A stretch of DNA of 62,200 nt. Source: Tabrizicola thermarum. Lineage in GTDB: Bacteria; Pseudomonadota; Alphaproteobacteria; Rhodobacterales; Rhodobacteraceae. Under the pieces are notes generated by a model. That model saw nothing but the letters and a program-made list of their open reading frames with translations. It was not told the origin of the DNA and did no database searches. The DNA is taken from the NCBI RefSeq assembly GCF_003574395.1, contig NZ_QMJY01000074.1, positions 1 to 62,200 on the forward strand, read 5' to 3'. Of the stretch, positions 5,073 to 55,652 are shown in pieces (position 1 is the first letter of the stretch; every line of letters begins with the position of its first letter). The position numbers were made by a program, and so were the translations under genes.

Positions 5073-5858
5073 TCACACCTGAAGGACGGACGACACGAGA
5101 AGCTGGGTATAGGCGTGCTGCGGGTCGTCCAGCACCTGATCGGTCAGGCCCTGTTCCACCACGCGGCCCGACTTCATCACCATCAGCCGATGCGCCAGCA
5201 GGCGGACCACGGCAAGATCGTGGGTGACGATGATGACCGACAGGCCGAGGTCGCGGACAAGCCCACGCAACAGGTCCAGAAGCCGCGCCTGCACGCTGAC
5301 GTCGAGGCCGCCCGTGGGTTCGTCCATGAACACGAGGCGGGGCGAGGTGACGAGGTTCCGCGCGATCTGCAACCGCTGCTGCATCCCGCCCGAGAAGGCC
5401 GAGGGCCGGTCGTCGATCCGGTCGGCGGCGATCTCCACCCGGCCCAGCCAGTCGGTGGCCTTGCCCCGGATCTCGCCATAATGCCGGGCGCCCACGGCCA
5501 TCAGGCGTTCGCCCACATTGCCGCCCGCCGAAACGCCCATGCGCAACCCGTCGCGCGGGTTCTGGTGGACGTAGGCCCAGTCGGTGCGCGACAGCCGCCG
5601 CCGGTCGGTCTCGCTCATCGCCAGCACATCGCGCCCGTCATAGCTGATGCGGCCAAGGTCGGGGCGCTGATGGCCGGCAAGGCAGGACAGTAGCGTCGAC
5701 TTGCCCGAGCCGCTTTCGCCGACGATGCCCAGCACCTCGCCGGGGTAGAGGTCGAAACTGACGTCGGCACATCCGATCCGGGGGCCGTAGCGTTTCGTCA
5801 GGCCCTCGACCCGCAAGAGCGGCTGATCGGTCACGGCCATGCGCTCCAGCATCGTCAT
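5073..5858 (-). CDS. phnK: PhnK, ABC-type ATPase subunit of the C-P lyase system
   Basis: This 261-residue ABC ATPase docks on the PhnGHIJ complex through PhnJ and is needed for phosphonate breakdown. Walker A is GESGSGKST, the signature FSGGMQQRLQIARN and Walker B LVFMDEPTGGLD, with the switch His in IIVTHD. The sequence is close to oligopeptide-type ATPases, as is normal for PhnK. The start at 5858 overlaps the phnJ stop as ATGA, which decides it over an in-frame ATG eight codons further upstream. No permease gene sits beside it. Confidence 0.93.
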   Translation of the reverse strand: MTMLERMAVTDQPLLRVEGLTKRYGPRIGCADVSFDLYPGEVLGIVGESGSGKSTLLSCLAGHQRPDLGRISYDGRDVLAMSETDRRRLSRTDWAYVHQNPRDGLRMGVSAGGNVGERLMAVGARHYGEIRGKATDWLGRVEIAADRIDDRPSAFSGGMQQRLQIARNLVTSPRLVFMDEPTGGLDVSVQARLLDLLRGLVRDLGLSVIIVTHDLAVVRLLAHRLMVMKSGRVVEQGLTDQVLDDPQHAYTQLLVSSVLQV

Positions 5859-6793
5859 CGCGCGCCCTCCGTCCCGGGCCAAATTCCTTCGAAGGAATTT
5901 GCAAAAGTCTTCGAAGACTTTTGATCCCCGCCCAGCCGTCCCGCATGACCCTTCGCCCGCCGCCCTTCGCAGAAATCGGTGTCCGAGCAGACGAACATCC
6001 GCCCGCCCTGATCGTCGGTGATGACCTCGTCCAGATAGCTGTCCTGCGCGCCGCAGAGGTCGCAGTCATGCGGGGCCTTGGAGGTCTGGAACGGATGGTC
6101 GTCAAAATCGAGGCTGACCACCTCGGTCCAGGGCGGCAGGGCATAGATCCGCTGCTCGCGCCCCGCGCCGAACAGCTGTATCGCCGGATTGCCCGAGAGC
6201 TTCGGATTGTCGAACCTGGGGATCGGCGAGGGGTCCATCACATAGCGCCCCTCGACCTTGACCGGATAGGCGTAAGAGGTCGCGATCTGGCCGTGGCGGG
6301 CGATGTCCTCATACAGCTTCACATGCATCAGCCCGTATTCCTCCAGCTCGTGCATCTTCCGCGTTTCGGTCTCGCGCGGCTCCAGAAAGCGCAGGGGTTC
6401 GGGGATCGGAACCTGATAGACGAGGATCTGGCCCGCCTTCAGCGGCGTCTCGGGGATGCGGTGGCGGGTCTGGATCACGGTCGCCTCGGTGGTGGCTTCG
6501 GTGGTGGCCACCCCGGCGGTGCGCTGGAAGAAACGGCGGATGCTGACCGCGTTCGTCGTGTCGTCCGCGCCCTGGTCGATGACCTTCAGCCGGTCCTCGG
6601 GCACAAGGCAGGCCGCCGTCACCTGCACCCCCCCCGTGCCCCAGCCGTAAGGCATCGGCATCTCGCGGCTGGCGAAGGGCACCTGATAGCCCGGCACCGC
6701 GATCCCCTTCAGGATCGCGCGGCGGATCATCCGCTTGGTCTGTTCGTCGAGATAGGCGAAGGTGTAGGCCCCGGCTTCAATATGTTCGGTCAT
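5855..6793 (-). CDS. phnJ: PhnJ, radical-SAM alpha-D-ribose 1-methylphosphonate 5-phosphate C-P lyase
   Basis: This 312-residue catalytic C-P lyase cleaves the carbon-phosphorus bond, releasing the alkane and a ribosyl cyclic phosphate. The Cys pattern C-x2-C-x21-C-x5-C (Cys244, 247, 269, 275) matches PhnJ: three ligands of the 4Fe-4S cluster plus the thiyl-radical Cys. The start overlaps the phnI stop (ATGA). The C-terminus is odd. Residues ~291-304 (QKSSKTFANSFEGI) are encoded by a double palindromic repeat element, and the chain is longer than typical PhnJ (about 280-295 residues). The extension lies beyond the catalytic Cys and may be tolerated as a tail. Confidence 0.94.
   Translation of the reverse strand: MTEHIEAGAYTFAYLDEQTKRMIRRAILKGIAVPGYQVPFASREMPMPYGWGTGGVQVTAACLVPEDRLKVIDQGADDTTNAVSIRRFFQRTAGVATTEATTEATVIQTRHRIPETPLKAGQILVYQVPIPEPLRFLEPRETETRKMHELEEYGLMHVKLYEDIARHGQIATSYAYPVKVEGRYVMDPSPIPRFDNPKLSGNPAIQLFGAGREQRIYALPPWTEVVSLDFDDHPFQTSKAPHDCDLCGAQDSYLDEVITDDQGGRMFVCSDTDFCEGRRAKGHAGRLGGDQKSSKTFANSFEGIWPGTEGAR
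5881..5922. repeat. Double TTCGAA palindrome element, copy A (inside phnJ 3' end)
   Basis: Two perfect 20-bp palindromes, AAATTCCTTCGAAGGAATTT and AAAAGTCTTCGAAGACTTTT, are separated by GC. The same architecture (20-bp palindrome, GC, 20-bp palindrome, each centred on TTCGAA) occurs at 20983-21024 with different arm sequences that remain perfectly self-complementary. This copy is translated as part of PhnJ, adding about 14 residues. Each half could form a stable hairpin in RNA of either strand. Confidence 0.85.
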
Positions 6794-9740: not shown

Positions 9741-10405
9741 TACTTGTCGAGGAAGGCCTCGGCCTGCAGCGAGCGGAAGTCGGTCAGCGCAGCGCGGAGG
9801 CGGGCGTGATCCCAGTCCCACCACGACAGGGCCATCAGGCGGTCGATGGTCCGGGCATCGAAACGGGCGCGGAGCGGCCGGGCCGGGGAGCCCGCGACGA
9901 TCGTGAAGGGGGCGACGTCCTTCGTGACCACAGCCCCCGAGGCGACGATCGCCCCGGCGCCGATGGTGACTTCGGGCTTGATGATGGCGCCATGGCCGAT
10001 CCAGCAGTCGGGGCCGAGCGTGGTGCGCCGCGCGGCGCGGGCGGCGAAGAAGTCCGGGTCGTCCTCGACGTCGTCCCAGTAGTAGGAAGAGCGGTAGAGG
10101 AAATGGTGCTGGGCGGCGTGGGTGAAGGGGTGGTCGGTCGGACCGATCCGGGTCATCGCCGCGATGTTGGAGAAGCGGCCGACGGTGGTGTTGGCGATGT
10201 CGGCAAGGCGGTCGCAGTAGGAATAGGCTTCGAAGGTGGAATTGAGGATGCGGGCGCCTTCGCCGACCTCGGTCCAGGGCTCGAACGTGGAGTTGTGGAC
10301 CTGGGCGGTGGGGTGGATCACCGCGCCGTCGGGGGACAGGCGCTGCCCACGCGTGGGCAGGGAGTCGGGGCCAGTGTTTTCAAGGGCTTCCGTGTGGGCG
10401 TTCAT
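9731..10405 (-). CDS. Hexapeptide-repeat acetyltransferase of phosphonate operons
   Basis: This 224-residue left-handed beta-helix acyltransferase belongs to the family found with C-P lyase genes. Imperfect hexapeptide repeats run through residues ~30-80 and ~120-170 (HPTAQVHNSTFEPW, IGHGAIIKPEVTIGAGAIVASGAVVTKDV), with the WWDWDH segment near the C-terminus. Xenobiotic-acetyltransferase-like enzymes use acetyl-CoA; the substrate here could be an aminoalkylphosphonate, as for PhnO, but that is an analogy. It is the last gene of the leftward phnCDE1E2 group, 176 bp after phnE2, with a repeat in between. The start at 10405 is chosen by family alignment. Confidence 0.85.
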   Translation of the reverse strand: MNAHTEALENTGPDSLPTRGQRLSPDGAVIHPTAQVHNSTFEPWTEVGEGARILNSTFEAYSYCDRLADIANTTVGRFSNIAAMTRIGPTDHPFTHAAQHHFLYRSSYYWDDVEDDPDFFAARAARRTTLGPDCWIGHGAIIKPEVTIGAGAIVASGAVVTKDVAPFTIVAGSPARPLRARFDARTIDRLMALSWWDWDHARLRAALTDFRSLQAEAFLDKYQG

Positions 10406-20672: not shown

Positions 20673-20906
20673 ATGAGCGACATCGCTGATCGCGTGAAGA
20701 AGATCGTCGTCGAGCATCTGGGCGTCGAAGCCGACAAGGTGACGGAATCGGCCTCGTTCATCGACGACCTGGGTGCGGATTCGCTCGACACGGTCGAGCT
20801 GGTCATGGCTTTCGAGGAAGAATTCGGGATCGAGATCCCCGATGACGCCGCCGAGACCATCCAGACCTTCGGCGACGCGGTGAAGTTCATCTCGGAAGCC
20901 GCCTAA
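20673..20906 (+). CDS. acpP: Acyl carrier protein AcpP
   Basis: This 77-residue acidic carrier protein holds growing acyl chains on a 4'-phosphopantetheine attached to Ser37 in [18 protein letters not shown]. The starting helix [18 protein letters not shown] is the usual one. The ATG at 20673 has an AGAGGAA ribosome binding site. It has its own promoter and is followed by a strong terminator, so it is probably the most highly expressed transcript of the fab block. The partner synthase fabF lies 1.3 kb downstream, past the ureohydrolase gene. Confidence 0.98.
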
Positions 20907-20933: not shown

Positions 20934-20957
20934 GGGCACCCTTCGGGGTGCCTTTTG
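20934..20957 (+). terminator. Rho-independent terminator of acpP
   Basis: GGCACCC and GGGTGCC pair around a TTCG tetraloop and are followed by TTTT, 28 bp after the acpP stop. This is a standard stable terminator hairpin. Confidence 0.9.
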
Positions 20958-20982
20958 CGTTCAGGGTCGGGCAGCGCGGTGC

Positions 20983-21024
20983 AAATCTTTTCGAAAAGAT
21001 TTGCAAAATCCTTCGAAGGATTTT
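20983..21024. repeat. Double TTCGAA palindrome element, copy B
   Basis: AAATCTTTTCGAAAAGATTT, then GC, then AAAATCCTTCGAAGGATTTT: two perfect 20-bp palindromes with the same GC spacer as copy A (5881-5922). Compared with A, arm bases change in pairs, so both palindromes remain perfect. This copy is intergenic, 26 bp past the acpP terminator and ~105 bp before the ureohydrolase gene. Confidence 0.85.
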
Positions 21025-21128
21025 GGCCCGGCCGCGCCGTATCGGCGAAGGTGCGCCGCTGCGCCCGTCTATGGCCTTGCCAGCCTGTCAGCCGACCCGC
21101 AGATTGAGGTCGGGATGAGGAGGCGCGC

Positions 21129-22076: not shown

Positions 22077-22247
22077 GAGTTAACCGATCCTGAACGCCCA
22101 CAGGCAAGCCTTTGATTTCGCTGCATCCCAAAAAGGCGCCGCGCGCGGCGCGCCCCTCGCCCCGCCGATCCGCCCGCCCCAAGGTTGCGCGGGGCAGGGG
22201 GGCCGTGTATCACCCGGGGCAAAGCCTGATCCGTGAGGGAGAAGAGA

Positions 22248-54240: not shown

Positions 54241-54271
54241 AAAAGCAAACGGGCACCCGAAGGCGCCCGCC
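54241..54271 (-). terminator. Rho-independent terminator downstream of eno
   Basis: On the minus strand GGGCGCC-TTCG-GGTGCCC (one G-T pair) is followed by GTTTGCTTTTG. It lies about 55-80 bp after the eno stop, past a perfect palindrome, and separates eno from the pseudouridine synthase gene. Confidence 0.75.
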
Positions 54272-54292
54272 GATTTCTTCCAGGAAACCGGA

Positions 54293-54314
54293 CCGGAATT
54301 TTCGAAAATTCCGG
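54293..54314. repeat. Single TTCGAA-centred 22-bp palindrome after eno
   Basis: CCGGAATTTTCGAAAATTCC plus GG is a perfect 22-bp inverted repeat centred on TTCGAA. It resembles one half of the double elements at 5881-5922 and 20983-21024. It lies between the eno stop and its terminator, so it is transcribed as part of the eno 3' UTR. Confidence 0.75.
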
Positions 54315-54323
54315 CCCTGACCC

Positions 54324-55652
<1,329 letters not shown>

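What the first reader, a model, noticed from the sequence alone, without database searches (positions are those of the whole stretch)
5881..5922. Composite element of two perfect 20-bp TTCGAA palindromes, conserved by paired base changes
Copies at 5881-5922 and 20983-21024 share an exact plan: 20-bp perfect palindrome, GC, 20-bp perfect palindrome, each centred on TTCGAA. The arms differ between copies (TTCC/GGAA versus TCTT/AAGA in the first unit; GTC/GAC versus TCC/GGA in the second), yet every palindrome stays perfect. Paired changes preserving symmetry imply selection on the folded or dimer-bound form, not on the sequence. A single-unit relative lies at 54293-54314. I know of no named family for it.
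Basis: partly seen in the sequence, partly recalled or inferred. Interest (0 to 1): 0.75.

Follow-up and report, generated by a model that had tools for sequence, protein, structure and literature searches.

The report
Paired hairpin repeats behind bacterial genes
A purple-bacterium genome carries dozens of copies of a 44-letter element made of two different, nearly perfect DNA palindromes placed back to back, mostly just behind genes; it looks like a new lineage-specific relative of known bacterial palindromic repeats, with an unusual rule that the two halves are never alike.

Summary
The unit is a 22-bp palindrome CAAA-N4-TTCGAA-N4-TTTG; two units abut (the 'GC' is one unit's last and the next unit's first base). 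The own genome has 47 TTCGAA pairs at this spacing, control 0; in the 46 read, 81 of 90 units are symmetric at all 7 inner arm pairs, and partner arms always differ by at least 2 of 8 bases. The '54293 single' is a sister type with its own neighbour hairpin. Copies sit mostly within 15 nt of stop codons, often filling convergent gaps. All 32 genomes of the genus have 3-46 matches, yet sites are polymorphic: 5 of 30 at phnJ, 4 of 30 at acpP. It is a REP/BIME-like repeat; a Y1 transposase and the GTAG head are missing. Symmetry with changing arms fits hairpins better than a protein dimer. G-U pairs are as rare as A-C and 11 of 19 single-pair changes are flips, pointing to symmetry kept at DNA level (template switching or need on both strands). 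Likely role: two-way gene-end boundary; unproven.

The parts
5880..5901 (.). unit CAAA-TTCC-TTCGAA-GGAA-TTTG of the dyad given
   Evidence: folds as a 9-bp hairpin
5902..5923 (.). unit CAAA-AGTC-TTCGAA-GACT-TTTG, abutting the former
   Evidence: both hairpins together -17.1 kcal/mol, z -4.7
5855..6793 (-). phnJ; the dyad lies in frame near its 3' end, giving extra C-terminal residues beyond the Pfam PhnJ profile; TGA/ATG overlap with the next gene kept
5073..5858 (-). ABC-transporter ATPase gene after phnJ (phnK by position; name recalled)
20982..21003 (.). unit CAAA-TCTT-TTCGAA-AAGA-TTTG of the second dyad
21004..21025 (.). unit CAAA-ATCC-TTCGAA-GGAT-TTTG, abutting the former
20673..20906 (+). 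acyl carrier protein gene upstream of the second dyad
20935..20956 (+). GC-rich hairpin plus TTTT behind acpP, read by eye as its ordinary intrinsic terminator, upstream of the dyad
   Evidence: sequence; a like hairpin in 28 of 30 genus loci, own included; not reported by the simple scan
54293..54314 (.). sister-type unit CCGGAATT-TTCGAA-AATTCCGG behind the enolase gene
54270..54291 (-). partner hairpin CCGGTTTC-CTGGAA-GAAATCGG, one G-U pair on the enolase sense strand
54324..55601 (-). enolase gene upstream of the sister-type array

Best explanation
A lineage-specific family of short interspersed palindromic repeats of the REP/BIME kind. The module is a pair (sometimes three) of abutting, non-identical inverted repeats of about 22 bp that can fold as separate hairpins; shown. 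It sits mostly just behind genes, on either or both strands, and is present or absent at the same site in different species; shown (transposition, transfer or losses of an old copy are not told apart). Both arms are kept complementary at the DNA level, most likely by template switching during replication together with a need for the hairpin on both strands; inferred. Identical or near-identical neighbours are excluded, because they would fold across each other or be deleted by slippage; the exclusion is shown, the cause inferred. Its most likely use to the cell is as a two-way gene-end boundary: hairpins at the 3' ends of mRNAs from either side that slow 3'-to-5' decay and read-through; inferred, about 0.35 by itself.
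For: Copies: 47 TTCGAA pairs in the own genome and 46 in R. calidifons, control 0 in both; at least one in each is chance by its inner bases. Core spacing 16 in 35 and 17 in 11 of the 46 read. Symmetry: 81 of 90 own units perfect at 7 inner arm pairs although that search fixed no arm base. Rule: no partner arms closer than 2 of 8 bases, 0 of 133 against a mean of 43.9 and a minimum of 26 in 5000 shuffles; own genome alone 0 of 25 against a mean of 8.9. Position: of 155 dyads 86 co-directional, 51 convergent, 5 divergent, 3 inside an ORF end, 10 not classifiable; all gene pairs in those loci, dyad pairs included, 518 co-directional, 121 convergent, 132 divergent; 56 of 86 co-directional copies within 15 nt of the upstream stop, 17 of 86 within 15 nt of the downstream start. 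Polymorphism. DNA-level symmetry: 6 G-U, 6 A-C and 9 other mismatches among 280 single-sense units, where the ancestral stems of B. cereus terminators had 4.02% G-U pairs (PMC5381666, passage); 11 of 19 single-pair ortholog changes are A:T/T:A or G:C/C:G flips, which a single G-U intermediate does not give.
Against: No RNA or termination data were available. The acpP dyad lies behind a terminator-like hairpin, so it may not be in the mature mRNA. Absence of the dyad at the same site in 25 of 30 (phnJ) and 26 of 30 (acpP) loci argues against a strong role there. A narrower count gave G-U 8 against A-C 3 in sense orientation, the direction expected of RNA; the wider count did not keep it. In long co-directional gaps (over 150 free bases) only 6 of 19 dyads are within 15 nt of the stop. 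No mobilising enzyme was found.
Confidence: 0.6

Rival explanations
1. RNA-level 3' element: a co-transcribed double hairpin whose pairing is kept by ordinary compensatory selection, protecting mRNA 3' ends from exonucleases (as the structure between malE and malF) or acting as a bidirectional terminator.
For: Two hairpins fold better than all 200 shuffles at both window dyads; position close behind stops and in convergent gaps; the R. sphaeroides PNPase paper offers stable structures that stop decay as a possible explanation of some 3' ends (PMC7866481, passages); malE case in PMC5927463 (passages).
Against: G-U pairs are as rare as A-C even where only one strand is the sense strand (6 and 6 in 280 units); the centre's orientation is not tied to the gene (31 sense, 21 antisense); single stems of -5.5 to -8.3 kcal/mol are weak; no proper U tract, only one weak minus-strand terminator-like match at one of two dyads.
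Confidence: 0.3
2. Translation brake: a hairpin within 15 nt of the stop codon stalls terminating ribosomes, as reported for REPs in E. coli.
For: 56 of 86 co-directional copies lie within 15 nt of the stop; the E. coli effect is described in PMC12306157 (passages).
Against: 30 of 86 are further away; at phnJ the dyad is itself in the reading frame; a near-stop place is also what a two-way 3' element in a compact genome would show.
Confidence: 0.1
3. Selfish or drifting repeat without cell function, spread by an unknown enzyme or recombination; symmetry is only template switching and recent copying.
For: 3 to 46 matches among 32 genomes of the genus; presence/absence at phnJ and acpP and one copy decayed by eye in L317; in-frame position in phnJ tolerated; a different hairpin pair at one site in R. 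calidifons with flanks about 92% alike.
Against: Stop-codon and convergent bias; heterotypic rule; dyads standing at orthologous places with changed arms in species whose flanks are only some 71-90% alike (loci chosen for holding dyads).
Confidence: 0.3
4. Paired binding site for a dimeric DNA-binding protein (road-block, nucleoid or gyrase-type site).
For: 22-bp repeat puts both units on nearly one helical face (inference); strand symmetry; BIMEs bind gyrase and IHF (PMC2817692, passages).
Against: Half-sites are rarely mixed within a unit; centres vary to non-palindromic ones with perfect arms; partners never share arms.
Confidence: 0.1

Closest known systems
REP / BIME elements with RAYT transposases (PMC2817692, passages)
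   Same: Short interspersed palindromes, mostly extragenic, often composite; palindromy preserved through complementary changes is reported there for Stenotrophomonas REPs too; many E. coli REPs lie close behind stop codons (PMC12306157, passages).
   Different: Mostly perfect 22-bp units without a GTAG head; abutting, never-identical partners; no Y1 transposase found in the own genome; fewer copies than the >100 usual for REPs.
Rickettsia palindromic elements, RPE (PMC10969869, passages)
   Same: Palindromic repeat that can sit in frame inside a gene (phnJ here).
   Different: RPEs are about 150 bp and often in genes; here 44 bp and inside an ORF end in 3 of 155 rows, two of them orthologs.
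Bidirectional intrinsic terminators (PMC5381666, passages)
   Same: Symmetric hairpin between convergent genes; compensatory changes.
   Different: Two hairpins, repeated family sequence, T run of 3-4 inside the stem, G-U nearly absent.
Caulobacter CIR and other MITEs (named in PMC10969869, passages)
   Same: Intergenic repeats, some of them in 3' untranslated regions.
   Different: No terminal repeats with target duplication recognised by eye here; the CIR sequence was not compared.

Membership tests
REP (RAYT-associated) | GTAG/GTGG-type head before the palindrome | tested here: not met
   Units start CAA, CAG, CCG or CGA and the flanks show no fixed GTAG, read by eye; REP heads as listed in PMC2817692 (passages)
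REP (RAYT-associated) | Y1/RAYT transposase (PF01797) in the genome | tested here: not met
   0 matches at E <= 0.001 in the own genome; the control rings in 5 of 14 known genomes; relatives not tested
REP (RAYT-associated) | Repetitive and extragenic | tested here: met
   142 of 145 classifiable dyads extragenic by my gene calls; 47 pairs in the own genome
BIME | Several palindromic units in alternating orientation with inter-unit sequence | tested here: inconclusive
   Two to three units abut; perfect palindromes have no orientation
Intrinsic terminator | GC-rich stem followed by a T tract | tested here: inconclusive
   Scan finds one weak minus-strand match at one dyad (shuffles mean 0.4) and none at the other; the same scan missed the acpP hairpin, so it is a weak test
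Known structured RNA (Rfam 15) | Match at gathering score | tested here: not met
   0 matches in the window
MITE | Terminal inverted repeats, target-site duplication, parent IS | not tested
   Filled and empty phnJ and acpP sites were only read by eye; no duplication was evident
RPE-like | In-frame place inside protein genes | tested here: met
   phnJ extended in frame in 5 of 30 relatives; exceptional for this family (3 of 155 rows)

The most novel reading that the evidence does not exclude
The pair is one functional device: a strand-symmetric double hairpin with an orthogonality rule (partner arms at least two mismatches apart) that marks gene ends for transcription from both sides, its arms free to change because replication template switching keeps rewriting one arm from the other. 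Different hairpin pairs replace each other at the same gene ends across Rhodobacteraceae, so the site and the architecture, not the sequence, would be inherited.
Probability: 0.25. Interest if true: 0.75.

Novelty: new variant of a known kind. Interest (0 to 1): 0.52.

Why it matters
It gives a natural set of dozens of near-perfect palindromes per genome, with orthologs in several species, on which the old question whether compensatory stem changes come from selection or from template switching can be tested directly. If the gene-end role holds, it would explain how compact convergent genes of this clade set their 3' ends. The heterotypic rule is a simple, falsifiable design principle for tandem hairpins.

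Tried and rejected
Loop code: variant centres first looked oriented with the gene; on 52 single-sense cases it was 31 to 21 (TTTGAA 17:7, TTGGAA 12:13, TTAGAA 2:1), so dropped. Sense-strand wobble as proof of RNA: 8:3 became 6:6 in a set with more loci but stricter anchors, which left out one array rich in mismatches (L197). Order of stronger and weaker hairpin relative to transcription: 26 first, 28 second, 26 ties. Outer GC stem around the dyad: looked at by eye, not consistent, not counted. RAYT mobilisation: no PF01797 match in the own genome. Plasmid carriage: one blastn search of 48 bases, with the low-complexity filter on, no match. Rfam: none. Literature, open-access PMC only: no paper with TTCGAA, palindrom and Rhodobacter together; of five arm sequences, three papers hold one, and the two listed are on unrelated topics; other searches were seen as listings and gave general relatives, some of which I opened for passages. 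A report in a subscription journal cannot be excluded; I recall, from no call, that old atp-operon work on Rhodopseudomonas blastica may have remarked on intergenic dyads.

Limits: gene calls come from my simple codon-usage caller trained on the window. The acpP and phnJ samples were not chosen for the element, but hold the 30 best-scoring of 59 and of 47 genomes with a match, hence the nearest relatives. Ortholog pairs are not independent. Own-genome symmetry was computed on 46 of 47 matches; the one not fetched looks like chance by its inner bases. The phnJ tree is mostly unresolved (18 of 27 inner branches open).

Full report
Observation. Both dyads are in the window as described, and their palindromes are perfect. 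The true unit is 22 bp, CAAA-N4-TTCGAA-N4-TTTG, and two units abut, so 'GC' is the end of one and the start of the next. In 20 trinucleotide-matched simulated windows the longest palindrome was 20 bp; the window has five of 22 to 26 bp.

Genome-wide. The own genome (unnamed, 3.65 Mb, 76 contigs) holds 62 strict units and 26 dyads with strict inner arms, with 0 for the reversed pattern. With only the two TTCGAA cores fixed it holds 47 pairs, control 0, of which 46 were read: core spacing 16 in 35 and 17 in 11; 90 units, 81 symmetric at all 7 inner arm pairs, 4 at six, 5 at five. The same-genus genome G191, which is Rhodobacter calidifons M37P by equal contig lengths, has 46. At least one match in each list looks like chance by its inner bases. 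At the 9 places where no strict partner was seen, a partner with CAAG/CTTG arms, a changed centre (TTCAAA) or one mismatch was present. A sister type has CCGG/CGAT arms and comes as twos and threes; the window's 54293 unit is of that type, with a neighbour at 54270-54291.

Distribution. Strict units occur at 9 or more copies in 8 of 198 genomes of the family; low counts in others are partly chance, as the control shows. The exact dyad is in 2 of 398 genomes sampled across the phylum, the own genome being one. In the genus, 32 of 32 genomes have 3 to 46 TTCGAA pairs, control 0 to 2, so the lowest counts may be partly chance. Hairpin-like matches with the same outer arms but centres TTTGAA, TTGGAA or TTAGAA occur in 70 of 394 family genomes, some lone ones being chance.

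Heterotypic rule. Among 155 dyads read without conditions on the outer arms, 133 had both units perfect and none had identical units. In these 133 partner arms differ by 2 (31), 3 (66) or 4 (36) bases, never 0 or 1, where shuffling gives 43.9 such pairs on average. In the own genome 46 of 46 pairs obey it. Which unit comes first relative to transcription does not matter: stronger first 26, second 28, tie 26.

Place. Of 155 dyads, 86 lie between co-directional genes, 51 between convergent, 5 between divergent ones, 3 inside an ORF end, 9 too near a locus edge, 1 without a gene call. In 43 of the 51 convergent gaps the whole gap is 78 nt or less, dyad included. In co-directional gaps 56 of 86 are within 15 nt of the upstream stop; in gaps with over 150 free bases only 6 of 19 are, so the hugging is weaker there.

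Evolution. Of 76 dyad pairs matched by both flanks, 89 units are unchanged and 63 changed; of these 35 are symmetric in both species and 28 involve an imperfect copy. One series shows a half-changed state: ACTT/AAGT in the own genome, an asymmetric copy in R. calidifons, TCTT/AAGA in two further loci. Nineteen changed units differ by a single pair: 11 flips (A:T/T:A or G:C/C:G), 4 other transversions, 4 transitions. Over all 60 pair changes flips are 25, transitions 26 and others 9, where random swaps from the unit pool give 32%, 57% and 10%, so replacement of whole units is not excluded. Among 280 units with one sense strand, inner-arm mismatches are 6 G-U, 6 A-C and 9 other; a narrower count had 8 G-U and 3 A-C. 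Bacillus terminator stems had 4.02% G-U pairs (PMC5381666, passage). Template switching is known to homogenise arms and invert spacers (PMC8604942, passages; PMC8794818, abstract), and the centre's orientation here is indeed not fixed, 31 to 21.

Presence and absence. In two samples not chosen for the element, the dyad follows acpP in 4 of 30 loci of the genus and sits at phnJ in 5 of 30 relatives, one of the five with altered centres and one mismatch; one acpP site shows a decayed copy by eye. At phnJ it lies in frame, adds residues beyond the Pfam domain, and keeps the TGA/ATG overlap with the next gene. On the acpP tree the holders are scattered, G772 and G777 standing inside or beside supported groups of non-holders; the phnJ tree is mostly unresolved. 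At some other sites a different hairpin pair stands in place of the dyad, once in R. calidifons with flanks about 92% alike (loci chosen for hairpins).

Reading. The hairpin form is favoured over a bound dimer because half-sites are rarely mixed and perfect arms also surround non-palindromic centres. The rarity of G-U, the flips and the free centre orientation favour symmetry kept at the DNA level, on both strands, over simple RNA compensation; the flips alone are few and not independent. The position favours a two-way gene-end role, but the polymorphism shows it is dispensable at single sites. Compared with REP/BIME elements the architecture is alike, while the GTAG head and the Y1 transposase are missing, so I do not file it as a RAYT-REP. 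Novelty: a new variant of a known kind.

Noticed in passing
L318, L319, L330, L333, L335, L337 (downstream of acpP): Palindromes (G)GTGGGC...GCCCACC with GTAG or CTAC at one or both ends, like classical REPs, stand behind acpP in genomes of the genus that lack the TTCGAA dyad there.
   Followed up: no
window 20935-20956: GC-rich hairpin plus TTTT behind acpP; a like hairpin was flagged in 28 of 30 genus loci.
   Followed up: partly
dyads of all loci: Only 1 of 63 distinct dyads has a stop triplet in any of six frames; arm shuffles give 93%, but column-matched draws only 4%, so it follows from the consensus.
   Followed up: partly
L143 6020-6137, L079 4770-4837, L127 7198-7266, L187 3661-3764: Other arrays of two to four perfect hairpins with different arms and centres behind genes in related genomes.
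   Followed up: partly
window 10343-10360 and 22136-22151: Two further long GC-rich palindromes (18 and 16 bp) that do not resemble the family.
   Followed up: no
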